Shown here in pieces: positions 18,169 to 30,202 of a DNA stretch of 64,000 nucleotides. Under the pieces are notes generated by a model that was not told where the DNA came from, searched no databases, and saw only the letters and a program-made list of their open reading frames with translations. The stretch's first letter is position 1. Every line of letters begins with the position of its first letter. The DNA is from Demequina activiva (GTDB lineage: Bacteria; Actinomycetota; Actinomycetes; Actinomycetales; Demequinaceae): positions 62,001-126,000 of the forward strand of contig NZ_BONR01000001.1 in NCBI RefSeq assembly GCF_016862815.1, read 5' to 3'. The position numbers were made by a program, and so were the translations under genes.

Positions 18169-19023
18169 GTGATGAAAGTAAGCGAGGCAGTGACGCCTCT
18201 CGAATCGATGGATCGACCGACGCGAGATCACCACTCATTCCCAATCCGAGACGTACCGGTTGCTCGGATTCGCCCGGAGGAAGGACTCGGACGCAGGCGC
18301 GACCGAGACGGGCACAGGGATCTGCAACGGTCAATCGAGCGATTCGGGGTACTGACTCCCATTACGGTGCGCCCGGCACCCGACAAGAGCGGTGACTACC
18401 TGCTGATCAAGGGACAAGGTCGCACGCTGGCGTGTCGTCTCCTAGGCGTCAGGACAATTCCAGCTGTCGTGGTCGACGACACCTACGCTGAGACCGCAAA
18501 GGTCCAGCAGTTTCTGGTGGAGAATGTCGCCCGCCTGAAAATGCGTCCTGTAGACCGCGCACTCCTCATCCAGCGCGCCCGCGCGGAGGGAGAAGAGACC
18601 TCCGCAATCGCTGGCAGGTTCGGTGTCTCGGCGGCCACTGTTCGTCGCCTTCTCACCCAACTGGATGGCGCGACTCCCGGCGAAGTTGAAGCACTGAGGT
18701 CCGGGGACGTGAACCTTGCTATGCAAGCGGTGATCGCGCGGCATGTCGAGCCTTCCGAGCGTCAAGGCGTGCTGACGATCATCGCGGGTCTGTCAATCAA
18801 GCCCAAGGAACTTGAAGCGCTCTTCGTCGCGTTGGGCTGGCAGGAGCTGGAGTCGCTCGGACGTGCAGAACTCGGCGCACGGGTGGCCCTCCTGCACTGG
18901 GCCTGCAACGCACTCGTCGAGTCGCCACGAGGCTCCTTGAAAGATCGGCTCGCCCAAGTCGCACTGGCTTTCCCGACGGAGCTCGCACGTGCTGGCGCTT
19001 CATACGCGGTGGTCTCCCAGTGA
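18169..19023 (+). CDS. ParB/RepB-like protein 1 of the island operon
   Basis: 284 residues. Residues about 25-110 are a ParB N-terminal (ParB/Srx) domain: P-I-R-D-V-P-V-A-R-I-R-P, then L-Q-R-S-I-E-R-F-G-V-L-T-P-I-T-V-R and Y-L-L-I-K-G-Q-G-R-T-L-A-C-R-L-L-G, the CTP/phosphate-binding box. A helix-turn-helix follows (T-S-A-I-A-G-R-F-G-V-S-A-A-T-V-R-R-L-L, about 143-161). The C-terminal third resembles the helical RepB/plasmid-partition region. No ParA gene accompanies it, so simple plasmid partition is unlikely. A role in binding or loading on DNA is plausible. A GTG at 18169 or the adjacent ATG at 18172 could be the start, with AAGGGG upstream. First gene of the eight-gene island operon. Confidence 0.82.
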   Translation: MMKVSEAVTPLESMDRPTRDHHSFPIRDVPVARIRPEEGLGRRRDRDGHRDLQRSIERFGVLTPITVRPAPDKSGDYLLIKGQGRTLACRLLGVRTIPAVVVDDTYAETAKVQQFLVENVARLKMRPVDRALLIQRARAEGEETSAIAGRFGVSAATVRRLLTQLDGATPGEVEALRSGDVNLAMQAVIARHVEPSERQGVLTIIAGLSIKPKELEALFVALGWQELESLGRAELGARVALLHWACNALVESPRGSLKDRLAQVALAFPTELARAGASYAVVSQ

Positions 19024-19886
19024 AGCTCATCGAGGTGCCAATCGGACAGCTGAGGTTGAGTGCGGAACTAGCGCGGTCTGGTAGCGCCAAGGCCTTCGAG
19101 GAGCGCTTGCGCTCGTCGGTCGAAGAGATTGGGCTGGCGGAGCCGCTGAAGGTGGCCGCTCGACCCGACGGGGGATACCTCGTGATAGACGGCGCGCTGA
19201 GACTTAGGGCGGTCCGGTCGATCCGGCAAAAGGACCCTTCGCGGTTCAAGACGGTCACTGCCTACTCGCTCGACTACGACATGCGATACGAGATCCGGTT
19301 CCAGTCCGACATCTACCAGGACTTGTTGCCAAGCCAGCTTGCCACCCTTGTAGAGCATCTTCACGAGGCAGAGCACGTACGCAAGGCCGACATTGCTCGC
19401 TACATCGGGGTGTCGCCTGCAACTCTGCGCAACTACACCGGGCTCTGGCGTCTCATGGAGCGAGGAGGCTTGTTTACCCGCATTGTCGAGCTCATGGATG
19501 TGGGCGTGTTTCCATCATCCAATCCATACGCATGGCTACGGCTGACCGACGATGGGCTCGAGCGCGCTCTGCGCGAGAAGTTTACGAAGGGGTCAGACCC
19601 CGAGACTTGGAGCACAGCCGTGGCAGCCGACGCGCGCCTGGGCCGTGCTGAGCGGTATCCGCTGAAGTTCATCGAAATGGTCACGGCGGCCCTGCCGCCC
19701 GAGTGCTATCTCGCGGGTGAAGAGGTGAGGGCCGTCAAGCGAGAGCTTGGTCTGCGACGTGCCGGCGGTCAGGCGACGTATAGGGACTTCAGCCACGCGC
19801 GCGATCGACTTTCTACTGTCTCGAAGAAGTCGAGAGAACCAGTTCTTGTCGCCGCCGCAAAGTCCTTTGAGGAGTACTTGGCTTGA
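19020..19886 (+). CDS. ParB-like protein 2 of the island operon
   Basis: 288 residues, clearly different from its neighbour but with the same plan. The ParB-N domain has I-E-V-P-I-G-Q-L-R-L at the start, I-G-L-A-E-P-L-K-V and Y-L-V-I-D-G-A-L-R-L-R-A-V. A helix-turn-helix follows (V-R-K-A-D-I-A-R-Y-I-G-V-S-P-A-T-L-R-N-Y, about 120-139), then a helical C-terminus of about 145 residues. The GTG start overlaps the previous TGA (GTGA). The box II residues differ from canonical ParB, so CTPase activity is uncertain. Two tandem divergent ParB-like proteins suggest a heteromeric DNA-binding or nuclease-like unit (inference). Confidence 0.8.
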   Translation: MKLIEVPIGQLRLSAELARSGSAKAFEERLRSSVEEIGLAEPLKVAARPDGGYLVIDGALRLRAVRSIRQKDPSRFKTVTAYSLDYDMRYEIRFQSDIYQDLLPSQLATLVEHLHEAEHVRKADIARYIGVSPATLRNYTGLWRLMERGGLFTRIVELMDVGVFPSSNPYAWLRLTDDGLERALREKFTKGSDPETWSTAVAADARLGRAERYPLKFIEMVTAALPPECYLAGEEVRAVKRELGLRRAGGQATYRDFSHARDRLSTVSKKSREPVLVAAAKSFEEYLA

Positions 19887-21253
19887 GCGAGCCGATAGAC
19901 TGGTCCGAGGACGCCTACTTCGACGCACCCGAGCGGGGATCGATCGACGGCGGGACGACATCGTCGGGAGACCTTTGGCACAGCATCAGCGCTCGCTGGG
20001 GCCATTCGATGCATACGATGTGCTCATATCACGGAATGTTTCCCGCTAAGGTCGCGCATCAGTTCATTCAACAGTATTCGCGTCCTGGAGACGTCGTTCT
20101 GGACCCGTTCAGCGGGCGTGGCACTACTCCTTTACAGGCCCGCGTCGAGGGCCGAAAGGCAATCGCCAACGACCTAAACCCGCTCGCGTATGTATTGTCT
20201 CGCGCGAAGACTTCACCGCCAAGTTGGGACCAAGCTAATGGCTTTGTCGACCAGCTTGAGCAGTCATTCAAAAGGATCAGGCAAAGTCCGCTCGACGTCT
20301 CGCCTGATATTCGCATGCTCTACCACGACAATACCTTGGCACAACTTGTCTTTATCCGAGGTCGCCTTCTCGAAAAGGGTATCACGAGCTGGAGCCGAGA
20401 GGAGTTCATGCTCGCTGGGTCGCTCGCGGGCATCATGCACGGTGGCTGGCGACGCGACGGTACGAGTCAATACCTGAGTATTAGCATGCCCAATACTTTC
20501 AGCATGTCACCCACCTATGTCGAAAAGTACATCCGTGAGAAGGGTCTACAGAAGCTCGACCAAGACGTATTCGAGCGGCTGCGCGACAAGCTAGCGCGTC
20601 TGTATCTGGACGACATCGGCGACGAAGTGGGCGTAGCGCACCACGCCGACGCGGCCACCTTGCTGGAGGGTTCGAAGATTGCCGAACAGTCCGTTGATCT
20701 AGTCCTGACCTCGCCTCCATATTTGCAGGTCGTCAACTACGCCCAGTCGAACTGGATTCGACTATGGCTGCTCGGCACTGACGAAGTGGGTCGCGAGCAG
20801 GGTGCTGGACGGAAGCAGCTCGACGCTGTGCTCGATCATCGTCACACGTACGCCTCGTATTGCCGCTTCATGCAGAAGACGGCCCTCGGCATACAGCGCG
20901 TTCTCAAGCGTGACGGCGTCGCGGTGCTGGTGATCGGCGACGTGAAGGACCCAGGCAAGGAAAACGCTTTGCCGCTCGCCAAGCAAATGTGGGATGACAT
21001 TGGAGATCAGACTGGGCTGCGCTTGCTCGAGCTGGTCGAGGACGAGCTGCCCCAGCAAAGCAAGGTAAGCCGCATCTGGGGCGATACCAAGGGCCAGGCA
21101 ACGAGTCGGGATTGCGCGCTAGTCCTCACACACATGGATGGCAAACCTGACCTCGGCAACGCATCAGTTGACTGGGATGAGCCGTGGAAGGAAGGGGGCC
21201 CTGACGCTGCACACGAGCGCCTTCGCGCACTACGAGCGCCGACTGAGACCTGA
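19883..21253 (+). CDS. DNA methyltransferase (N6-adenine or N4-cytosine)
   Basis: 456 residues. The S-adenosylmethionine motif L-D-P-F-S-G-R-G-T-T is at 73-82, followed by the N-D-L-N-P motif at 96-100. The catalytic motif T-S-P-P-Y is at 276-280, preceded by V-D-L-V-L. The motif order (SAM site before catalytic site) and the insertion of about 175 residues between them, probably including target recognition, set the arrangement. The SPPY form is compatible with either N4-cytosine or N6-adenine methylation. The TTG start overlaps the previous TGA (TTGA). In this operon it could mark self DNA, with the helicase-nuclease and ATPase acting on unmarked DNA (inference from known methylation-based systems). 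The recognition sequence is unknown. Confidence 0.9.
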   Translation: MSEPIDWSEDAYFDAPERGSIDGGTTSSGDLWHSISARWGHSMHTMCSYHGMFPAKVAHQFIQQYSRPGDVVLDPFSGRGTTPLQARVEGRKAIANDLNPLAYVLSRAKTSPPSWDQANGFVDQLEQSFKRIRQSPLDVSPDIRMLYHDNTLAQLVFIRGRLLEKGITSWSREEFMLAGSLAGIMHGGWRRDGTSQYLSISMPNTFSMSPTYVEKYIREKGLQKLDQDVFERLRDKLARLYLDDIGDEVGVAHHADAATLLEGSKIAEQSVDLVLTSPPYLQVVNYAQSNWIRLWLLGTDEVGREQGAGRKQLDAVLDHRHTYASYCRFMQKTALGIQRVLKRDGVAVLVIGDVKDPGKENALPLAKQMWDDIGDQTGLRLLELVEDELPQQSKVSRIWGDTKGQATSRDCALVLTHMDGKPDLGNASVDWDEPWKEGGPDAAHERLRALRAPTET

Positions 21254-21366
21254 CTGGCGCGCTCGACACTGTGGCACAGATAAGCAGGCGAAGCCGCGCG
21301 TCCGACCGAGCCTGGCACTATCCGGCCAAGTAAGCTGTCTGCAGGCAACGTAGCGCTGGGAGAAGT

Positions 21367-23409
21367 GTGAGCAACACCGAGGTATGTCTCCGCGATGTGA
21401 CGTTTCAGGAGAACTACTCCACGAGCGGCGCTTCGATGCTCCATGAGTTTTATGCGCCCGCGCTCTCGCATGCCATTCAGTATGACCGCGCTGCCGGCTA
21501 CTTTTCCTCGGCGATTCTCGCGCTTGCTCCAGCAGTGTTCAGTGAGTTTGTCGAGCGCGGCGGCAAAATGCGTCTTCTCTGTTCGCCCAATCTGAGCGAG
21601 GCTGATGCTGAAGCCGTCCTAGCGCTTCCTGAATCGCATCGCCCGACGCCAGTAGAGGTAGCGGCGACATCGCTGGCCGCACTTGCCCACGGCACGCACG
21701 TCCAGTCCCGGGCAGTCGCATGCATGCGGGCCTTGATCGACTCTGGAGTTCTCGAAGTACAGTTCGTAACCGTTGGAGCCTCGGGGCTCTACCACGAGAA
21801 GATCGGTGTGTTCACGGACACTCAGGGCAATCGCCTCTCTTTCAGCGGAAGCGCAAACGAGACAGCCTCTGCTTGGTCTGGCCTGGCAAATCACGAAGGA
21901 ATCGAGGTCTTTCCCGAGTGGCTTGGCGAATCTGAAGAGCGACGGTGTTCAAGGCACTCCGATCAGTTCGATGAGACCTGGATGGGCTTGCGCCGGAATC
22001 TACGCGTGACAAGCGTCGATCAGGCCTCTCGCGTGATCCGTGAGTACGTGCCGGCAGAGCCCCTCGCGGAGATCGTAGAGTCTCTCCGAAGGGCCTTGAC
22101 CGACGCCGAGCTCCACCCGAAGACGATTTCTTTGAGGCCGTACCAGGCGCAGGTCCTCGACTCATGGGAGCGCGCCGGTCGCCGGGGGATCGTGGCGTTT
22201 GCAACTGGTGGGGGCAAGACACGCACAGCGCTTGAGGCCATTCGACGGTGGACGGCGGACGGCAAGCCTGCCCTCGTAATGGTCCCCTCCGAGCTGCTTC
22301 ACAGACAGTGGACTGCTGAGATCACCGAGATGCTGGGCGCCCCGGCAATGCTGCTAGCTGGGGCAGGCCACGGCCGAGACGGTTGGAGCTCCCGCCTTGC
22401 GGACTACACCCGTGATGATTCGTCCCTCGGACAGCGCGTCATCTTGTCGACCTATCAAACGGCGGCCACTTCCCGATTCCTCGAGTTGGCGCATGGCGGC
22501 GAACACTTGCTCGTTGTCGGTGATGAGGTGCACAGCGTGGGGGCGCCCGATACGAGGCGTGTGTTGGAGAGGATCGCATCGGGCGCGAGGCTTGGCTTGA
22601 GCGCGACGCCTCAGCGATATGGCGATCCGACTGGCACCGCGGCGATCTTCGAGTACTTCGGTGACATTCTCGTCCCTGAGTTCACCCTCCGGGATGCGCT
22701 CGATGCTGCGGTCCTCGTGCCCTACGACTACGACTTCGTCACATGCGCGTTGACTGAAGACGAGCAAGTGGCTTGGGATGAGTTGACGGAACGCGTTGCG
22801 AAGGAGATTGCACGCCACGATGGCGATCTGTCTGAGCACGCGCTCCACCTCCTTCGGCAGCGTGCCCGTATATCGAAGGGTGCGCATAACAAGGCAACTA
22901 TCGCCCGTGACCTTGTCGCAAAGAACTACCGCACAGGCGATCGCTGGCTGGTCTACTGCAGCGACGTGAACCACCTTCGCGAGGTTCGCGAGCAACTCGG
23001 GGGCCTTGGACTCGAGTTGCTTGAGTACCATTCTCAAGACGACGGAGACCACAAGGCGACTCTGGACTTCTTTTCGAATCGTGGGGGGATTCTACTAGCC
23101 ATCAAGTGTCTCGACGAGGGAATCGATATCCCGATGATCAACCGGGCGCTTATTCTGGCGTCATCGACGAACCCGCGCGAGTACGTACAGCGCCGCGGTC
23201 GAGTCCTGCGTCGCTCGCCCGGGAAGTACAGCTCGCATCTATTTGACGTGATCGTGATCGGTACCGACGGGAAGGCTATTGCCCCTAGCGAGGTGATCCG
23301 TGCGAAAGAATTCGCCCGAGACTCCCGTAACATCGGACCTGAACTCTATCTTGATGACTTGTTGCCGGCTGGCATGATATCCGGTGAACTCGATGTCGAG
23401 GAAGACTAG
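21367..23409 (+). CDS. PLD-family nuclease fused to SF2 helicase
   Basis: 680 residues. The N-terminal 200 residues are a phospholipase-D-type nuclease domain with H-E-K at 143-145 (from L-Y-H-E-K-I-G-V-F-T-D) and G-S-A-N-E-T at 161-166. Residues about 250-640 are a superfamily 2 helicase: Q-motif-like R-P-Y-Q, Walker A T-G-G-G-K-T at 280-285, D-E-V-H at 386-389, S-A-T at 412-414 and motif VI Q-R-R-G-R at 608-612. A single HKD motif means the nuclease probably works as a dimer. The GTG start has a GGGAG-like site. It is separated from the methyltransferase by 113 bases, the only sizeable gap in the operon, where TAAGCT at 21329 could serve an internal promoter. Confidence 0.9.
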   Translation: MSNTEVCLRDVTFQENYSTSGASMLHEFYAPALSHAIQYDRAAGYFSSAILALAPAVFSEFVERGGKMRLLCSPNLSEADAEAVLALPESHRPTPVEVAATSLAALAHGTHVQSRAVACMRALIDSGVLEVQFVTVGASGLYHEKIGVFTDTQGNRLSFSGSANETASAWSGLANHEGIEVFPEWLGESEERRCSRHSDQFDETWMGLRRNLRVTSVDQASRVIREYVPAEPLAEIVESLRRALTDAELHPKTISLRPYQAQVLDSWERAGRRGIVAFATGGGKTRTALEAIRRWTADGKPALVMVPSELLHRQWTAEITEMLGAPAMLLAGAGHGRDGWSSRLADYTRDDSSLGQRVILSTYQTAATSRFLELAHGGEHLLVVGDEVHSVGAPDTRRVLERIASGARLGLSATPQRYGDPTGTAAIFEYFGDILVPEFTLRDALDAAVLVPYDYDFVTCALTEDEQVAWDELTERVAKEIARHDGDLSEHALHLLRQRARISKGAHNKATIARDLVAKNYRTGDRWLVYCSDVNHLREVREQLGGLGLELLEYHSQDDGDHKATLDFFSNRGGILLAIKCLDEGIDIPMINRALILASSTNPREYVQRRGRVLRRSPGKYSSHLFDVIVIGTDGKAIAPSEVIRAKEFARDSRNIGPELYLDDLLPAGMISGELDVEED

Positions 23410-23431
23410 CAGACCAGACGAAGGGGGATTT

Positions 23432-23650
23432 GTGTCTCAACTCGAGAGGCCCTCACCGCGCGAAGAAGCGCTAGTGGCCATCCTTAAGACGCGTTCGGAT
23501 ACGGAGGGCGCGGAAATCAGTCCGGCCGCGTGGTCGAAGCTAGTCGCGCACGCTTGGGACCGGCGTAATCACCTGGGTGATCGGCGCGAGATTCAAAGAG
23601 AGATCAAGAGAGTGCTCCTTGAGGATGCACATAAGGTTGCGGACGACTGA
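23432..23650 (+). CDS. Small helical protein of the island operon
   Basis: 72 residues from a GTG preceded by AAGGGGG five bases away; the longer frame from 23384 would overlap the helicase gene. It is rich in charged residues and predicted helical (P-R-E-E-A-L-V-A-I-L-K, then E-I-Q-R-E-I-K-R-V-L-L). No family recognised. Its stop overlaps the ATG of the ATPase by one base (TGATG), so it is probably made with the ATPase and may be a subunit or adaptor of it. Confidence 0.7.
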   Translation: MSQLERPSPREEALVAILKTRSDTEGAEISPAAWSKLVAHAWDRRNHLGDRREIQREIKRVLLEDAHKVADD

Positions 23651-25626
23651 TGCAGATATCCGAGCTTGAACTGGTCAATTGGGGTCCTTACTACGGCAAG
23701 CACCGCATCCCGCTCGACGTCACACCACATGCGCCAGTGGTGCTCTTCCGCGGGGAGAATATGCGAGGCAAGACAAGTCTCCTTCGTGGAATCGTGTGGG
23801 CGTTGTACGGAGAGATCCGCGAACAGGATGGGCGCACGCCTCTCGACGTCGGACGCATGGTCAACACCGACGCACTCGAAACGGGTGAGACAGAGTTCGG
23901 CGTGCGTCTGAAGTTCGTACATGCCGGTGCCGAGTTCACGCTCTACCGCACCTCCATAGCAACGGAGGATAGGCCTGGAAAGGTCACAGTCCAGGTACCG
24001 AAGCTCGACCTGAAGCCGGGAGACGGGCTCCCCTATCCAGTTGCCCAAATCCCGGACGTCATAAATGGGATTCTGAGCCGCGACATTTCGGACTTCTTTC
24101 TATTCGACGGAGAGATGCTTAGTCGCTTCGAGGAGAGGCTCCGCGAAGAGCGCTCCTCAGCTCAAGGGTTCGTGCGGACTCAAGTCGAGCGCGCGCTGGG
24201 GCTCCCCTTTCTCGGAGATCTCTGGAGAGACATGGATGCGGTCCTCGACGACGTCACGAAGTCAATCGACCAGGTGGTACGAAAAGAGAAGGCACATCAC
24301 AAGGACAGCGAGGCCTACCGCGCGAAGGCAGATGAGCTGAAGGCCACCGAGAAGAACCTGCTCGAGCTCGAGAAGAGGGAGCGCGCCCTCACACAGGAGA
24401 TCGACGAAATCGAGGCGCAACTTGCAAAGCTTGACGAGGTCAAGGATGCGTACCACGAGCGCAAGGGATTGCAGCGCGAGCTCGATGCATCCCATGACAC
24501 CATCAAGGACTACCGCCAGTCGATCGCTGAGCGGGCAGAGCAGCAGTGGTGGCTGCCGATGGCTGACAAGCTGTTTGAGGATCTCCAGGATATCGAAGAC
24601 TGGATTGTCGCTGCGGAGAAGGTGGATCGCGAGCAGCTTCGTACACGGATAAAGATTGAGCAGCTCGAAGGCCAACTCGGAAGCGGCTATTGCTCTGCCT
24701 GCGGACAGCCTGTCGCCACTCACAACGAGGATGAGCTAAGCGCGGAGATAGCCCAGCTTGAAGCCACACTCCAGTACGACGCCGAAAGCACCAGCCTAGA
24801 TGAGCTTCGGGTGCGGCGTGATCGGCTAAGGAAGTTCTCGACGGCTCCTAGTTCGCTGCAGTGGCTGCACGATCAGGAGCGCGATCTCCGCCGAGAGAAG
24901 CTCAAGAACGATAGGCGCGCTCAGCAGATTCTCCACTTGACGGATCAGCTTCAGGGGACCACAGTCGAGATCGACGCCCTGGAACGCAATCTCTTGGAGG
25001 CAAAGGGCACCAAGCAAAGGCTCGCTTCCCTCAAGGGGCCGCTCGAGATCAAGAGGGGCCAGATCAAGGCCGAGGTAAACCGACTCGGAGTGAAGCTAGC
25101 GCAAAAGCCCGAGGTAGACCCCGACACGCGGCGCCTCCAAGCAATGGCGGAGGAAGGTAGCGAAATCGTCGCTCGGTCCTACGACGGATTCCGTTCGGCA
25201 ATGCGGGAGCGTGTTCAGACAGCTACGAGTCAGTTGTTCCGAACGCTGACAACTGAGAGCGACTATTCGGGAGTGTCTATCAGCGATGACTACCGGCTAG
25301 CGGTGCTCCATCGCGACGGCAGGGCGCAGGGCATGATCTCTGCCGGTGCGAATCAGATTCTGACGATGGCGTTTATCGGTGCGCTCGGTGAGTGCTCCGT
25401 GGACGAGGCCCCCATGGTGATGGACACCCCCTTCGGCCGACTCGATATCGGCCACCGGCGCGCGATTCTCGAATGGGTTGGCACCTTCGATCGTCAGGTG
25501 ATTCTCTTCGTGCAGTCAGGTGAATACGACCCCACCCGGGACGCTGCCATTCTGGCCGGCAAGATTGGGCGTGAGTATACGATCGATCGACTGAGTGCGA
25601 AGCGTTCGGAGGTGAACCCCGCATGA
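23650..25626 (+). CDS. DndD/Rad50-like SMC-type ATPase with zinc hook
   Basis: 658 residues. Walker A is G-E-N-M-R-G-K-T at 35-42. The DndD-like segment S-D-F-F-L-F-D-G-E lies at 147-155. Coiled coils flank a C-S-A-C-G-Q-P zinc hook at 348-354, as in Rad50. The second half ends in A-N-Q-I-L-T-M-A-F-I-G-A-L near the signature region and Walker B P-M-V-M-D-T-P-F with the D-loop F-G-R-L-D. This is the layout of DndD, the ATPase of phosphorothioation systems, and of Rad50/SbcC DNA-end sensors. No dndC-type sulfurtransferase or PAPS-reductase-like gene is present, so phosphorothioation itself is unlikely. It probably dimerises on DNA and powers the system. Confidence 0.88.
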   Translation: MQISELELVNWGPYYGKHRIPLDVTPHAPVVLFRGENMRGKTSLLRGIVWALYGEIREQDGRTPLDVGRMVNTDALETGETEFGVRLKFVHAGAEFTLYRTSIATEDRPGKVTVQVPKLDLKPGDGLPYPVAQIPDVINGILSRDISDFFLFDGEMLSRFEERLREERSSAQGFVRTQVERALGLPFLGDLWRDMDAVLDDVTKSIDQVVRKEKAHHKDSEAYRAKADELKATEKNLLELEKRERALTQEIDEIEAQLAKLDEVKDAYHERKGLQRELDASHDTIKDYRQSIAERAEQQWWLPMADKLFEDLQDIEDWIVAAEKVDREQLRTRIKIEQLEGQLGSGYCSACGQPVATHNEDELSAEIAQLEATLQYDAESTSLDELRVRRDRLRKFSTAPSSLQWLHDQERDLRREKLKNDRRAQQILHLTDQLQGTTVEIDALERNLLEAKGTKQRLASLKGPLEIKRGQIKAEVNRLGVKLAQKPEVDPDTRRLQAMAEEGSEIVARSYDGFRSAMRERVQTATSQLFRTLTTESDYSGVSISDDYRLAVLHRDGRAQGMISAGANQILTMAFIGALGECSVDEAPMVMDTPFGRLDIGHRRAILEWVGTFDRQVILFVQSGEYDPTRDAAILAGKIGREYTIDRLSAKRSEVNPA

Positions 25627-26012
25627 GCGACTCTGATCTCGTACCGTCGGATAGGGACGGAGACCAGCGGACCTTTGGTCCATCTGCCGCTAACAAGGAG
25701 GCGCTCGAGTCATTGGTCCGACAGGGCTACTTCAACACAAGCATTCGTGCCTTCGAGGCCGCCGCTATGCTTGCACTCAGGAAGGGCCTCGATCCGTCGA
25801 CTGCTCCGCCCTCAACCGGCACCATGTGGAACAGGGGAAGCGTGAACCTCGCGATCCTCGAGTTCCTGGGGTGGTACATGCCCACTGATGCTCCAGTCCG
25901 GCTATTCGCTCAGCTCGGGAATGCGGGGACGGCGTACATCTCGGAGAAGGTGCACACCGGCGGCTACGACCTTTCGGCCATCTTCGAACTCCCAGAGATC
26001 GAACTCGGGTAG
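25623..26012 (+). CDS. Small accessory protein of the island operon
   Basis: 129 residues, with its ATG overlapping the ATPase stop (ATGA). After an acidic N-terminus comes a helical segment (N-K-E-A-L-E-S-L-V-R-Q-G-Y-F-N-T-S-I-R-A-F-E-A-A-A-M-L-A-L-R-K-G-L), then a mixed region with the conserved-looking F-L-G-W-Y-M-P. In gene position, size and coupling to a DndD-like ATPase it resembles DndE, but I see no convincing DndE sequence match. The Y-F-N-T-x-I-x-A-F stretch could also be a ribbon-helix-helix-like element. Function unknown; a DNA-binding partner of the ATPase is the simplest guess. Confidence 0.7.
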   Translation: MSDSDLVPSDRDGDQRTFGPSAANKEALESLVRQGYFNTSIRAFEAAAMLALRKGLDPSTAPPSTGTMWNRGSVNLAILEFLGWYMPTDAPVRLFAQLGNAGTAYISEKVHTGGYDLSAIFELPEIELG

Positions 26013-26021
26013 ACGTGTGCC

Positions 26022-27110
26022 TTGACTGGAGCTCAAGGGATTGCAGACGACCAGGCTTTTCCTGTGCAATGGTCGAGCGCGACAGCGGACGCACGGGACT
26101 TCCTTGATTCGCTGAGCGCGGCCGACCCATCGCTCGCCGACGCGGCCCTCACACACGAAGTGGATTCTGTGCTTGGTCGCGAGCCGCCCTCAGCCAGCCT
26201 CCGAGAGAGGCGTCAGCCAGAACCACCGCCAGAAGACTCCAGCGCTTCACTGCCGCCAAGATTCGACTGGTTTGGGCGCCTGGTCGAGCAGCTACCGCCG
26301 CTTGATGACGAGGGTGCCAGTACGGCTGCGATTAGGGTAGAGGCAGGACTGCTCGCGCAGGAGCGCCTTGAGAGGCTAGATCTCTCAACGACGCCTCGGC
26401 AGGAACTCGCGGACCTCCACACGCTTATTGAGCAGGGCGAGGACGCCTGGCGCTGGTTGATCCTGGCCAATCTTCGCCTTGTGTTTCACTGGACCAAGGG
26501 CGTTGCCAGGTCAATCAGTCCCGTGTGGGCCGAAGACGCGTTCCAGGCCGGTTGTATCGGCCTCATGCGTGGCCTGGAGAGTTGGGACCACCAGAGGGGC
26601 TACAAGCTCAGTACGTATGTGTCCTGGCACATTCGCCAGTCCGTGCAAAGATGGCGCGCCAACGAGGTTCAGATAATCCGGCTTCCCGTTCATGTGTGGG
26701 AAGCACTTAACTCTGAGGACAACGGGCTTGCAAAGGAGGTTCGTGTGATGGCGGAACGTACACGAACACTCGCCTCGTTTGAGGCAATGCTTGATCGCGA
26801 AGAAGATGTGCCTTGGGACGGGTGCCTCGAGGACCTCGATGAGTCGTTGGACCGTGAGTTTATGGCGGTGTGGTTGCTCGACGGTTTGGACGAACGCAGT
26901 CGTGACATCATCGAGCGTCGCTTCGCTCTTCGCCCTGATATCGATGAGCCGATGACCCTCGACGAGATCGGCGCCCGTTGGGGTGTCACGAGAGAACGAA
27001 TTCGTCAGTTGGAGGGCAAGATCCTCAAAGCTCTCCGGGAAAAGGCGTCCGGCACAACATCGCCGTGGCTAGAGCTAAAGCGCAAGCGGCGTGAGAAGGC
27101 TGGGCGCTAG
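26022..27110 (+). CDS. Sigma-70-family factor encoded in the island operon
   Basis: 362 residues. Region 2 is at about 147-210: L-R-L-V-F-H-W-T-K-G-V-A, A-E-D-A-F-Q-A-G-C-I-G-L-M-R-G-L, then Y-K-L-S-T-Y-V-S-W-H-I-R-Q-S-V-Q-R. Region 4 is at about 285-345: L-D-E-R-S-R-D-I-I-E-R-R-F and L-D-E-I-G-A-R-W-G-V-T-R-E-R-I-R-Q-L-E-G-K-I-L-K-A-L. The order matches group 2/3 sigma factors (S-T-Y-x-x-W-x-I-R-Q and R-E-R-I-R-Q-I-E). The N-terminal 120 residues are unrelated, acidic and Ser/Pro-rich. The start is a TTG nine bases after the previous stop. It is the last gene of the operon, so expressing the operon would also make a factor able to redirect RNA polymerase. Confidence 0.88.
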   Translation: MTGAQGIADDQAFPVQWSSATADARDFLDSLSAADPSLADAALTHEVDSVLGREPPSASLRERRQPEPPPEDSSASLPPRFDWFGRLVEQLPPLDDEGASTAAIRVEAGLLAQERLERLDLSTTPRQELADLHTLIEQGEDAWRWLILANLRLVFHWTKGVARSISPVWAEDAFQAGCIGLMRGLESWDHQRGYKLSTYVSWHIRQSVQRWRANEVQIIRLPVHVWEALNSEDNGLAKEVRVMAERTRTLASFEAMLDREEDVPWDGCLEDLDESLDREFMAVWLLDGLDERSRDIIERRFALRPDIDEPMTLDEIGARWGVTRERIRQLEGKILKALREKASGTTSPWLELKRKRREKAGR

Positions 27111-27536
27111 CTGCTCTATCGATGCGCCGGGTTCGTGGCGATAGGTCACGCGTTGCCAGCGCGACGGGTGATAGGGCCTGTCTCCGAAGGTCCAAACACG
27201 CAGACTGTGTTGCCGAAGCACCTCCTTGAGCCAAGCGCGTTGTTGTAAGTAAAGGGAGCGGTGTGCACCAGACGGAGCCTGTACTCCATACGCGAGCAAT
27301 ACGTCCGTGGCGTCGGCACGATCCAACTCACGACGGACGTGAGCCCGCGCGCGCTGCCAACCGTCGTCGGCCGCATACGGTAGCGCATTTACGTTCGCAA
27401 GCGGGTTCGAGTAGATATTTGCGATTGAGACTGTTTCGCAATTAAGGGCATTGCGCGCAACGTTCACTCGCCCGAGCGTTAGCAACCCATCGCCTAGCGG
27501 CGGGCTGTGCAGGACGGCTACGAGGTGCCTGGGCAT
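27075..27536 (-). CDS. DUF1643-like protein
   Basis: 153 residues. The segments R-N-A-L-N-C-E-T-V-S-I-A-N-I-Y-S-N-P-L, D-V-L-L-A-Y-G and the C-terminal F-G-D-R-P-Y-H-P-S-R-W-Q follow the order of DUF1643, small proteins of unknown function common on mobile DNA (N-L-F, W-G, G-x-P-x-H-P). The match is partial. It is convergent with the sigma-factor gene, and their 3' ends overlap by 36 bases. Base composition is island-like. Confidence 0.5.
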   Translation of the reverse strand: MPRHLVAVLHSPPLGDGLLTLGRVNVARNALNCETVSIANIYSNPLANVNALPYAADDGWQRARAHVRRELDRADATDVLLAYGVQAPSGAHRSLYLQQRAWLKEVLRQHSLRVWTFGDRPYHPSRWQRVTYRHEPGASIEQLAPSLLTPLAL

Positions 27537-29011: not shown

Positions 29012-30202
29012 ATGGAGAAGCTGAACTCTCGGCTTCTGAACTGGGCATCCATCCTGGATCCCCAGACCAAGGAGCAGGCACTCACCACCTCGACCATGCC
29101 GTTCATTCACCCGCACCTGGCGCTCATGCCCGATGCCCACTTGGGGCTGGGCGCGACCGTCGGCTCAGTGATCCCCACCCTCGGCGCCATCATGCCGGCC
29201 GCCGTGGGCGTGGACATCGGCTGCGGGATGATCGCCGTGAGGACGCAGTTCACGCGGGAGGACCTCACCGGTCACGACCTCGCGGAGCTGCGGTCGCAGA
29301 TCGAGCGGTCCATCCCGCTGAGCGCGGGAGGGAAGAACCGGACCATGCGCGACTCGGCTCAGGTGCGGATCGACGCCCTCGAGGCGGCGGCCACCAGCGA
29401 GCAGATCGCGCGGTTCGACTCGATGGCCAAGGCGTGGAGGCTGCAGCTGGGCTCGCTCGGCTCCGGCAACCACTTCATCGAGGTGAGCGCGGACGAGGCC
29501 GATCGCATCTGGTTCTTCCTGCACTCGGGGTCCCGGGGCATCGGCAACAAGATCGCTCAGCACCACATCGCGGTCGCCCACACCGTGATGTCGCGGTACT
29601 GGATCTCGCTGCCGGACAGGGACCTCGCGTACCTCGTGGAGGGCACTGCGGAGTTCGACGACTACATCGCTGACCTGCTGTGGGCCCAGGCCTTCGCGCT
29701 GGCGAACAGGGAGGAGATGATGGACCGGGTGATCGACCAGTTCGAGCGGTGGATGTCCGCCGCCACGGGCTCGGCGGTCGCGGTCGACGAGGAGCAGCGG
29801 ATCAACTGCCACCACAACTTCTCCGCCAAGGAGAGACACTGGGGCAAGGAGGTCTGGGTGTCCCGGAAGGGCGCCATCTCCGCGCGCGACGGCGAGTGGG
29901 GCCTGATCCCGGGCTCGATGGGCACGGCCTCCTACGTCGTGACCGGCCTGGGCAACGCGGTGTCGATGCACTCCTCCCCGCACGGGGCGGGGCGGGTCTA
30001 CTCGCGGTCCAAGGCGCGGAGGCAGTTCGCGCAGGAGGACCTCCGGGCCTCGATGGTGGGCATCGAGTACCGGGACACGGACGCGTTCATCGATGAGATT
30101 CCCGCGGCGTACAAGGACATCGATCAGGTCATGGCGGACTCCGCTGACCTGGTGGAGATCCAGCACACGCTCCGGCAGCTCGTCAACGTGAAGGGCGACT
30201 GA
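29012..30202 (+). CDS. rtcB: RNA-splicing ligase RtcB
   Basis: 396 residues, a little shorter than E. coli RtcB. It joins 2',3'-cyclic-phosphate or 3'-phosphate RNA ends to 5'-OH ends using GTP and Mn2+. Metal and guanylation residues are recognisable: P-D-A-H-L-G-L-G (40-47), V-D-I-G-C-G-M, G-S-G-N-H-F-I-E, H-S-G-S-R-G-I-G, N-C-H-H-N, and the C-terminal S-P-H-G-A-G-R containing the guanylated His. No archease gene is adjacent. Codon use is chromosomal, so the gene lies outside the island. A strong hairpin follows the stop codon. Confidence 0.95.
   Translation: MEKLNSRLLNWASILDPQTKEQALTTSTMPFIHPHLALMPDAHLGLGATVGSVIPTLGAIMPAAVGVDIGCGMIAVRTQFTREDLTGHDLAELRSQIERSIPLSAGGKNRTMRDSAQVRIDALEAAATSEQIARFDSMAKAWRLQLGSLGSGNHFIEVSADEADRIWFFLHSGSRGIGNKIAQHHIAVAHTVMSRYWISLPDRDLAYLVEGTAEFDDYIADLLWAQAFALANREEMMDRVIDQFERWMSAATGSAVAVDEEQRINCHHNFSAKERHWGKEVWVSRKGAISARDGEWGLIPGSMGTASYVVTGLGNAVSMHSSPHGAGRVYSRSKARRQFAQEDLRASMVGIEYRDTDAFIDEIPAAYKDIDQVMADSADLVEIQHTLRQLVNVKGD

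What the first reader, a model, noticed from the sequence alone, without database searches (positions are those of the whole stretch)
18169..27110. Candidate new defence or DNA-integrity operon: two ParB-like proteins, methyltransferase, PLD-helicase, DndD-like ATPase and a sigma factor
Eight genes on one strand are almost all coupled by start/stop overlaps (GTGA, TTGA, TGATG, ATGA) or gaps of at most 22 nt; only the methyltransferase-helicase gap reaches 113 nt. They lie in a stretch of visibly lower G+C between gene remnants. Methyltransferase, helicase, nuclease and SMC-like ATPase are the parts of known methylation-guided anti-phage systems (BREX, DISARM, and from memory the helicase-methylase-ATPase group named Hma). 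I know of no described system that adds two ParB-like proteins and its own sigma factor.
Basis: partly seen in the sequence, partly recalled or inferred. Interest (0 to 1): 0.88.

Follow-up and report, generated by a model that had tools for sequence, protein, structure and literature searches.

The report
Methylation-linked PbeABCD defence operon with sigma factor
This eight-gene bacterial operon is a known kind of anti-virus system (PbeABCD, here paired with a DNA methylase) that carries its own transcription sigma factor, a partner kept in related bacteria, and two ParB-like proteins not seen in the related operons compared.

Summary
The eight genes are real, co-directional and tightly packed, with foreign composition. 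The core is not new. Genes 4-7 are PbeA (PLD nuclease-helicase), PbeB (small protein), PbeC (CxC ABC ATPase) and PbeD: PbeA and PbeC match PADLOC models at 4e-185 and 1e-269, and a predicted PbeD structure matches DndE best. Methylase-linked PbeAC loci are already in print. No DndC was found in this genome, so methylation is the likely self mark. What looks new is the sigma factor: PbeA-B-C-D-sigma recurs in the same order in five actinobacterial loci that form a supported clade, while what precedes PbeA changes; a sixth locus lacks it. More distant sigma-region-4 proteins lie by Pbe genes on three proteobacterial plasmids. The two ParB-like proteins were found beside Pbe genes only here and probably form a marking cassette with the methylase. 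Best reading: a methylation-marked PbeABCD restriction system that encodes its own sigma factor, by analogy with R-M controller proteins. Roles of sigma and ParBs are inferred. New variant of a known kind.

The parts
18169..19023 (+). ParB1: ParB N-terminal domain plus HTH, 284 aa; KorB/Noc-like; GERR motif changed to GQGR
   Evidence: PF02195 1.3e-10; TIGR00180 6e-20; PDB ParB 6t1f 6e-14 with alignment, KorB 8qa8 6e-8
19020..19886 (+). ParB2: diverged ParB-like protein with possible HTH, 288 aa
   Evidence: TIGR00180 4e-5 and PF02195 0.038, both under cut-off; phrog_1033 ParB 1.7e-7
19883..21253 (+). DNA methyltransferase, 456 aa, motif I (DPFSGRG, residue 74) before motif IV (TSPPY, residue 276); probably N4-cytosine type
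   Evidence: PF01555 8.6e-18, two stretches, the best (residues 42-99) matching the C-terminal part of the profile; motif positions
21254..21366 (+). 113-nt gap, the only large one: proposed seam between modification cassette and PbeABCD-sigma
   Evidence: the conserved block begins at PbeA in relatives; no consensus sigma-70 promoter found here
21367..23409 (+). PbeA: PLD (HxK...GSxN) nuclease fused to SF2 helicase (GGGKT, DEVH), 680 aa
   Evidence: PDLC02707 PbeA 4.4e-185; motifs
23432..23650 (+). PbeB: small protein, 72 aa
   Evidence: position between PbeA and PbeC; 56% identical over 62 residues to the L006 counterpart; no Pfam or PHROG match; not scanned against PADLOC
23650..25626 (+). 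PbeC: CxC-type ABC ATPase (Walker A, CSAC hook, MVMDTP Walker B), 658 aa
   Evidence: PDLC02746 PbeC 1.1e-269; motifs
25623..26012 (+). PbeD: DndE-fold protein, 129 aa
   Evidence: AlphaFold2 model pLDDT 81; DndE 7x4e Z 10.8, 4lrv Z 10.3, 5wtu Z 9.8, next entry Z 6.5; no sequence-profile match
26022..27110 (+). Sigma-70 family factor, regions 2 and 4 with a region 1.2-like stretch; region 3 shortened; 362 aa
   Evidence: PF04545 3.9e-16, PF04542 1.1e-11; aligned with four counterparts and a presumed housekeeping sigma

Best explanation
It is a PbeABCD (CxC ABC ATPase-DndE) anti-invader system of the methylation-coupled type, acquired as an island. The methylase, perhaps helped by the two ParB-like proteins, marks host DNA. 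PbeC with the DndE-like PbeD scans DNA, and PbeA (PLD nuclease plus SF2 helicase) blocks or cuts DNA without the mark; PbeB keeps the complex in check. The sigma factor is a fifth, conserved part that directs RNA polymerase to the system's own promoter(s), so that expression is self-reinforcing and can lag behind marking of the host, in the manner of R-M controller proteins, or can rise on infection. Shown: gene content, family membership of PbeA, PbeC and (by predicted fold) PbeD, conservation of the PbeA-sigma block, no DndC match in the genome. Inferred from published work on relatives: antiviral action, the scanning role of PbeCD, the restraining role of PbeB. Inferred here without direct test: base methylation as the mark, the sigma factor's target, and the ParB roles.
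For: PADLOC PbeA and PbeC matches. PbeD model matches DndE best in both structure comparisons. CxxC hook in PbeC of all six actinobacterial loci compared (window, L006, L057, L058, L059, L028). HxK...GSxN kept in 17 of 19 PbeA frames; the other two are short frames of 476 and 565 residues. PbeA-B-C-D-sigma in the same order in five actinobacterial loci (window, L006, L057, L058, L059), which form a supported clade in the PbeA tree (19 rows) and the PbeC tree (16 rows). A DNA methylase at all five: upstream on the same strand in three, on the other strand in two. No DndC match in the own genome or in the four related genomes, while two of the three plasmid records searched with them match over the cut-off. 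Published: DndCDEA-PbeABCD protects an archaeon against virus SNJ1, and deleting any one of the four pbe genes impairs this (PMC6459918, passages); methylase-linked CxC systems (PMC10853773 section 16). Sigma regions 2 and 4 stay close to a presumed housekeeping sigma (L017), including IRQ at the start of region 2.4 and TRERIRQ in region 4.2 (region names recalled). ParB1 and the methylase match two different parts of one phage methylase family, phrog_498. PbeC is absent at E 1e-10 from 36 of 36 other same-genus genomes searched.
Against: No consensus sigma-70 promoter before PbeA in the window and only weak, unshared candidates elsewhere; that scan had no shuffled control. Region 3 of the sigma factor is shortened, so it may not work as a normal sigma. 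A sixth actinobacterial Pbe locus (L028) shows no sigma match, and 11 of 19 Pbe loci in all show none. ParB-like genes occur near no other Pbe locus tested, so their part rests on operon overlap and the phrog_498 family only. NCBIfam's own models for relatives are matched only below cut-off (TIGR04095 301 bits against 600 for PbeA, TIGR03185 153 against 246 for PbeC), as expected of a distinct branch. Xiong et al. found PbeABCD dependent on phosphorothioation. Neither defence activity nor methylation could be tested here.
Confidence: 0.72

Rival explanations
1. The sigma-like protein is not a transcription factor but a structural DNA-binding part of the Pbe complex: its region 2 and region 4 folds read or open DNA for the nuclease-helicase.
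For: Sigma-4-like domains linked to defence proteins occur without region 2: three alphaproteobacterial plasmid loci (L013, L014, L021) have region 4 next to Pbe genes, with an alpha-CTD match in L013 and alpha-CTD or helix-hairpin-helix matches under cut-off in L014 and L021; DndH variants carry a sigma-related HTH (PMC10853773, passage) and BrxL a sigma-like HTH (PMC12839542, passage). Region 3 is shortened in the window protein.
Against: In the five actinobacterial loci region 2 is kept, and L058 and L059 look more like ordinary sigma factors, with a region 1.2 match (L059 over, L058 just under the cut-off).
Confidence: 0.2
2. The ParB pair is unrelated to the defence: remnants of a plasmid or integrative-element partition or regulation module that happens to sit upstream.
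For: ParB1 resembles plasmid ParB/KorB proteins; no other Pbe locus of those tested has them.
Against: They overlap each other and the methylase gene by 4 nt each and share composition with the rest; neither the operon nor nine flanking ORFs gave a ParA or relaxase match in Pfam (the rest of the window was not scanned); a phage methylase family matches both a ParB and a methylase part.
Confidence: 0.3
3. The operon is a solitary, non-functional leftover: PbeABCD without its phosphorothioate partner.
For: No DndC match in the genome; Xiong et al. raise the possibility that solitary PbeABCD are inactive (PMC6459918, passages).
Against: All eight frames are open and catalytic motifs are intact; four related loci keep the same block with a methylase at hand, despite clear divergence (41-66% identity to the window in PbeC).
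Confidence: 0.1

Closest known systems
DndCDEA-PbeABCD (Xiong et al. 2019, PMC6459918)
   Same: PbeA-PbeB-PbeC-PbeD in the same order, with the same domains and similar sizes (PbeB 66 and PbeD 152 aa there, 72 and 129 here)
   Different: No dnd phosphorothioation genes; a methylase instead; a sigma factor and two ParB-like proteins added
CxC ABC ATPase-DndE systems with cytosine-N4/C5 methylases (Rakesh et al. 2024, PMC10853773)
   Same: HKD-SF2 helicase, small protein, CxC ATPase, DndE partner and a circularly permuted N4-type methylase
   Different: The passages and section read mention no sigma factor gene and no ParB pair in these loci (DndB, a ParB-superfamily protein, belongs to the Dnd part)
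MZA system (MzaA sigma factor)
   Same: A sigma-70 protein in an anti-phage operon; the window sigma matches the MzaA model over parts of regions 2 and 4
   Different: 148 bits against a cut-off of 800; no other MZA part in the PADLOC rows shown for the operon; the rest is Pbe
R-M controller (C) protein systems (recalled)
   Same: A regulator encoded with a restriction system that would delay restriction behind marking
   Different: C proteins are small HTH activators, not sigma factors; regulation is not tested here

Membership tests
PbeABCD (CxC-DndE) system | PbeA: PLD/HKD domain fused to SF2 helicase | tested here: met
   PDLC02707 4.4e-185; HxK...GSxN and DEVH
PbeABCD (CxC-DndE) system | PbeC: ABC ATPase with CxxC hook, DndD-like | tested here: met
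   PDLC02746 1.1e-269; CSAC at residue 348
PbeABCD (CxC-DndE) system | PbeD: DndE-like tandem RHH protein next to PbeC | tested here: met
   Predicted structure matches DndE, Z 9.8-10.8, more than 3 above the next entry. Caution: the model is mostly helical, for which the tool calls Z under about 13 alone unsafe, and Foldseek's E is only 0.04; DndE ranks first in both. No sequence-profile match
PbeABCD (CxC-DndE) system | PbeB: small fast-evolving protein between PbeA and PbeC | tested here: met
   72-aa ORF in that place, 32-56% identical to counterparts in four actinobacterial loci
PbeABCD (CxC-DndE) system | Antiviral activity needing a DNA modification | not testable with these tools
   needs experiment
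DndCDEA phosphorothioate-dependent form | DndC sulfurtransferase in the genome | tested here: not met
   no TIGR03183 match at E 1e-5 in G000, 99.7% complete
Methylase-coupled CxC system | DNA methylase in or beside the operon | tested here: met
   PF01555 in gene 3; methylases at the four related loci
MZA system | Full-length MzaA equivalog | tested here: not met
   148 bits against cut-off 800
BREX/DISARM | Signature proteins matched in PADLOC (PglZ, BrxC, DrmABC) | tested here: not met
   seven of the eight operon proteins scanned; only weak, partial BrxH, DrmD and PglX matches through shared helicase or methylase folds (for two proteins only the best 25 rows are shown, which a full-length match would head)
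Group 2-like sigma factor | Regions 2 and 4 | tested here: met
Group 2-like sigma factor | Directs RNA polymerase to promoters | not testable with these tools
   a consensus scan gave no clear promoter

The most novel reading that the evidence does not exclude
PbeABCD-sigma is a distinct, transcriptionally self-contained immune system: a dedicated sigma factor senses infection or unmarked DNA and switches RNA polymerase to the defence operon, and in the window's version two ParB-like proteins act as nucleotide-gated clamps that read methylation state and load the PbeCD scanner.
Probability: 0.12. Interest if true: 0.82.

Novelty: new variant of a known kind. Interest (0 to 1): 0.52.

Why it matters
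Sigma factors that belong to a defence system seem little studied; in the searches made here only MzaA came up as a precedent. Here one is kept in the same place in five related loci while the marking enzyme upstream is exchanged, so it is tied to the restriction module rather than to the modification module. That makes a clear, testable claim about how a bacterium times or triggers a modification-dependent restriction system. Methylase-coupled PbeABCD has been noted by others but, in the passages read, not tested.

Tried and rejected
Wholly new system: rejected, since PbeA and PbeC match named PADLOC models over almost their whole length.

Phosphorothioation as the mark: rejected for this genome, no DndC match.

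ParB pair as a conserved part of Pbe systems: not supported. PF02195 was searched in 20 genomes or records holding Pbe or related genes; 15 of 20 have some match, but only the window has one within 8 kb of the Pbe genes; the next nearest lie 8.8, 9.8 and 12.5 kb away, and matches on other contigs were not counted as near. Phmmer at E 1e-3 with ParB1 and ParB2 over open segments above 100 residues of 18 other loci found none. L008, L009, L043, L049, L050 and L051 were not put into; L040 and L042 end near contig ends.

Trees: the PbeC tree leaves out L014 and L023 (two candidate ATPases each) and L042; several rows have long branches.

PbeC hook: my C..C pattern was found in 10 of 23 PbeC or DndD-like frames and not in the other 13, which are DndD or distant relatives.

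ParB2 relatives: 3 of 245 other genomes of the phylum, best E 3.7e-7, 28-29% over about half the protein; two plasmids at E 5e-3 and 7e-3, each beside an AAA family ATPase gene; none in phage records or, by a search for close relatives only, viral contigs.

Methylase relatives: 6 plasmid and 2 phage records. Of these I looked at 2 plasmids and 1 phage: L064 and L065 have DUF87 (HerA-like) genes and L064 a NurA gene, and no annotated ParB; L066 has no annotated ParB. L024 and L027 have HerA-like neighbours, read by eye; L025 does not. No relative in viral contigs.

Sigma relatives: 95 plasmid records at E 1e-18 or better; one neighbourhood, L067, was looked at and has no Pbe genes annotated. 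None in viral contigs. PbeC: none in viral contigs, 2 phage records with partial matches.

Promoter search before the first gene and before PbeA in five loci: nothing common or strong. Empty site: the one relative whose RtcB neighbourhood I compared (L063) shares only RtcB with window 10-40 kb by blastn. AlphaFold model of ParB2 alone: pLDDT 41, not used.

Comamonas L007/L044: the sigma matches in that genome are not beside Pbe; I misread them as adjacent in my first checkpoint note and corrected this on coordinates.

Literature: seven searches. PbeA with sigma factor gave 4 papers, of which I opened one in passages (PMC12707154) and saw three as listings. In the listings and passages seen, none describes a sigma gene in Pbe loci. 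The 2020 ABC ATPase paper of the Rakesh/Aravind group is not held and may do so.
Full report
Observation. The eight genes are present as described, all open, on one strand, with four overlaps, gaps of 22 and 9 nt and one of 113 nt. G+C falls to 57-63% from 70-76% upstream and recovers gradually downstream; GC3 is 0.63-0.74 against 0.89-0.95 in three neighbouring ORFs. PbeC is missing at E 1e-10 from all 36 other same-genus genomes searched. This looks like an acquired block.

What the genes are. Genes 4 and 6 match PADLOC PbeA and PbeC at 4.4e-185 and 1.1e-269. Gene 7 has no profile match, but its AlphaFold2 model (7 sequences, pLDDT 81) matches DndE crystal structures at Z 9.8-10.8, with the next entry at 6.5; in Foldseek DndE also ranks first, with a weak E of 0.04. 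The model is mostly helical, so the Z values alone would not be safe. Gene 5 is the small protein in PbeB's place. These are the four parts that Rakesh et al. (PMC10853773, section 16) define for CxC-DndE systems and Xiong et al. (PMC6459918, passages) named PbeABCD. PbeA keeps HxK...GSxN and helicase motifs; PbeC keeps its CxxC hook. Gene 3 is a methylase with motif I before motif IV (TSPPY), fitting the circularly permuted N4 type that Rakesh et al. report beside such systems; the base it methylates is inferred. Gene 8 is a sigma-70 protein. Genes 1 and 2 are ParB-like, the second only weakly so.

Comparison. PbeC relatives were found in 1 genome of 394 of the class by profile at E 1e-30 (the window's own), in 2 of 396 of the order at E 1e-40 (own included) and in 4 of 219 of the family of the Microbacterium MAG at E 1e-15 (MAG included). 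Five actinobacterial loci carry PbeA-B-C-D-sigma in that order: the window, L006 (78, 56, 66, 69 and 56% identity to the five window proteins), L057, L058 and L059. They form one supported clade in both trees. What precedes PbeA varies: ParB1-ParB2-methylase (456 aa) in the window; a different, 340-aa type methylase on the same strand in L006 and L057; no methylase in the operon but one of that type on the other strand in L058; methylase matches on the other strand upstream in L059. A sixth actinobacterial Pbe locus, L028, has a methylase but no sigma match. Among 19 Pbe loci, window included, phmmer with the window sigma found matches in 8: the five above and three alphaproteobacterial plasmids; 11 had none. 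In those three plasmids the protein has region 4 and no region 2 match, with an alpha-CTD match in one and weak alpha-CTD or helix-hairpin-helix matches in two; it lies after PbeD in L013 and before PbeA in L014 and L021. These are similar in kind but need not be orthologues.

ParB pair. None of the other 18 loci has a relative, and ParB_N matches in 20 genomes or records fall within 8 kb of Pbe genes only in the window. ParB1 and the methylase match different parts of phrog_498, a phage methylase family (4.4e-8 over profile 35-116 and 2.8e-13 over profile 355-492), so ParB and methylase parts appear to be joined in nature. Together with the 4-nt overlaps this suggests a ParB1-ParB2-methylase marking cassette, with the 113-nt gap as the seam. 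That is inference. ParB1 has GQGR in place of the GERR motif (alignment); that GERR is needed for CTP binding is recalled, not tested.

Mechanism. Methylase marks self; PbeCD scans; PbeA acts on unmarked DNA; PbeB restrains. Xiong et al. saw a replication block without cleavage, while Rakesh et al. argue for cleavage by the HKD domain; the sequence does not decide. There is no DndC match in this genome or in the four related ones, so base methylation is the likely mark. The sigma factor keeps region 2 and the region 4 helix close to a presumed housekeeping sigma while region 3 is shortened. It is the gene after PbeD in all five loci, which fits positive self-control, as with R-M controller proteins (recalled). 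A promoter scan neither supports nor refutes this.

Known or new. The core and its methylase coupling are known. A sigma factor in a defence operon has a precedent in MzaA. A conserved sigma factor as fifth gene of PbeABCD, and the ParB pair, were not found in the listings and passages seen; the 2020 paper from the same group could not be read. I rate it a new variant of a known kind.

Noticed in passing
window 29012-30202: RtcB RNA ligase gene downstream; patchy in relatives (3 of 19 genomes including own at E 1e-50).
   Followed up: partly
window 27075-27536 (-): Weak DUF1643-like ORF convergent with the sigma gene (E 0.0014, below cut-off).
   Followed up: no
L014 4636-7689 and L021 4611-7691: Proteins of 1017 and 1026 aa with sigma region 4 and weak alpha-CTD or helix-hairpin-helix matches sit between dnd genes and PbeA on two Rhodobacterales plasmids.
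   Followed up: partly
L024 5017-11052: Methylase related to the window's (about 40% identity) followed by proteins that look HerA-like, NurA-like and GIY-YIG-like by eye; L064 also has methylase, DUF87 and NurA genes: a possible methylase-HerA-NurA defence set.
   Followed up: no
L049 7747-12433: DndD/PbeC-like ATPase followed by an FtsK/SpoIIIE-domain protein and another AAA ATPase beside dnd genes on a Mesorhizobium plasmid.
   Followed up: no
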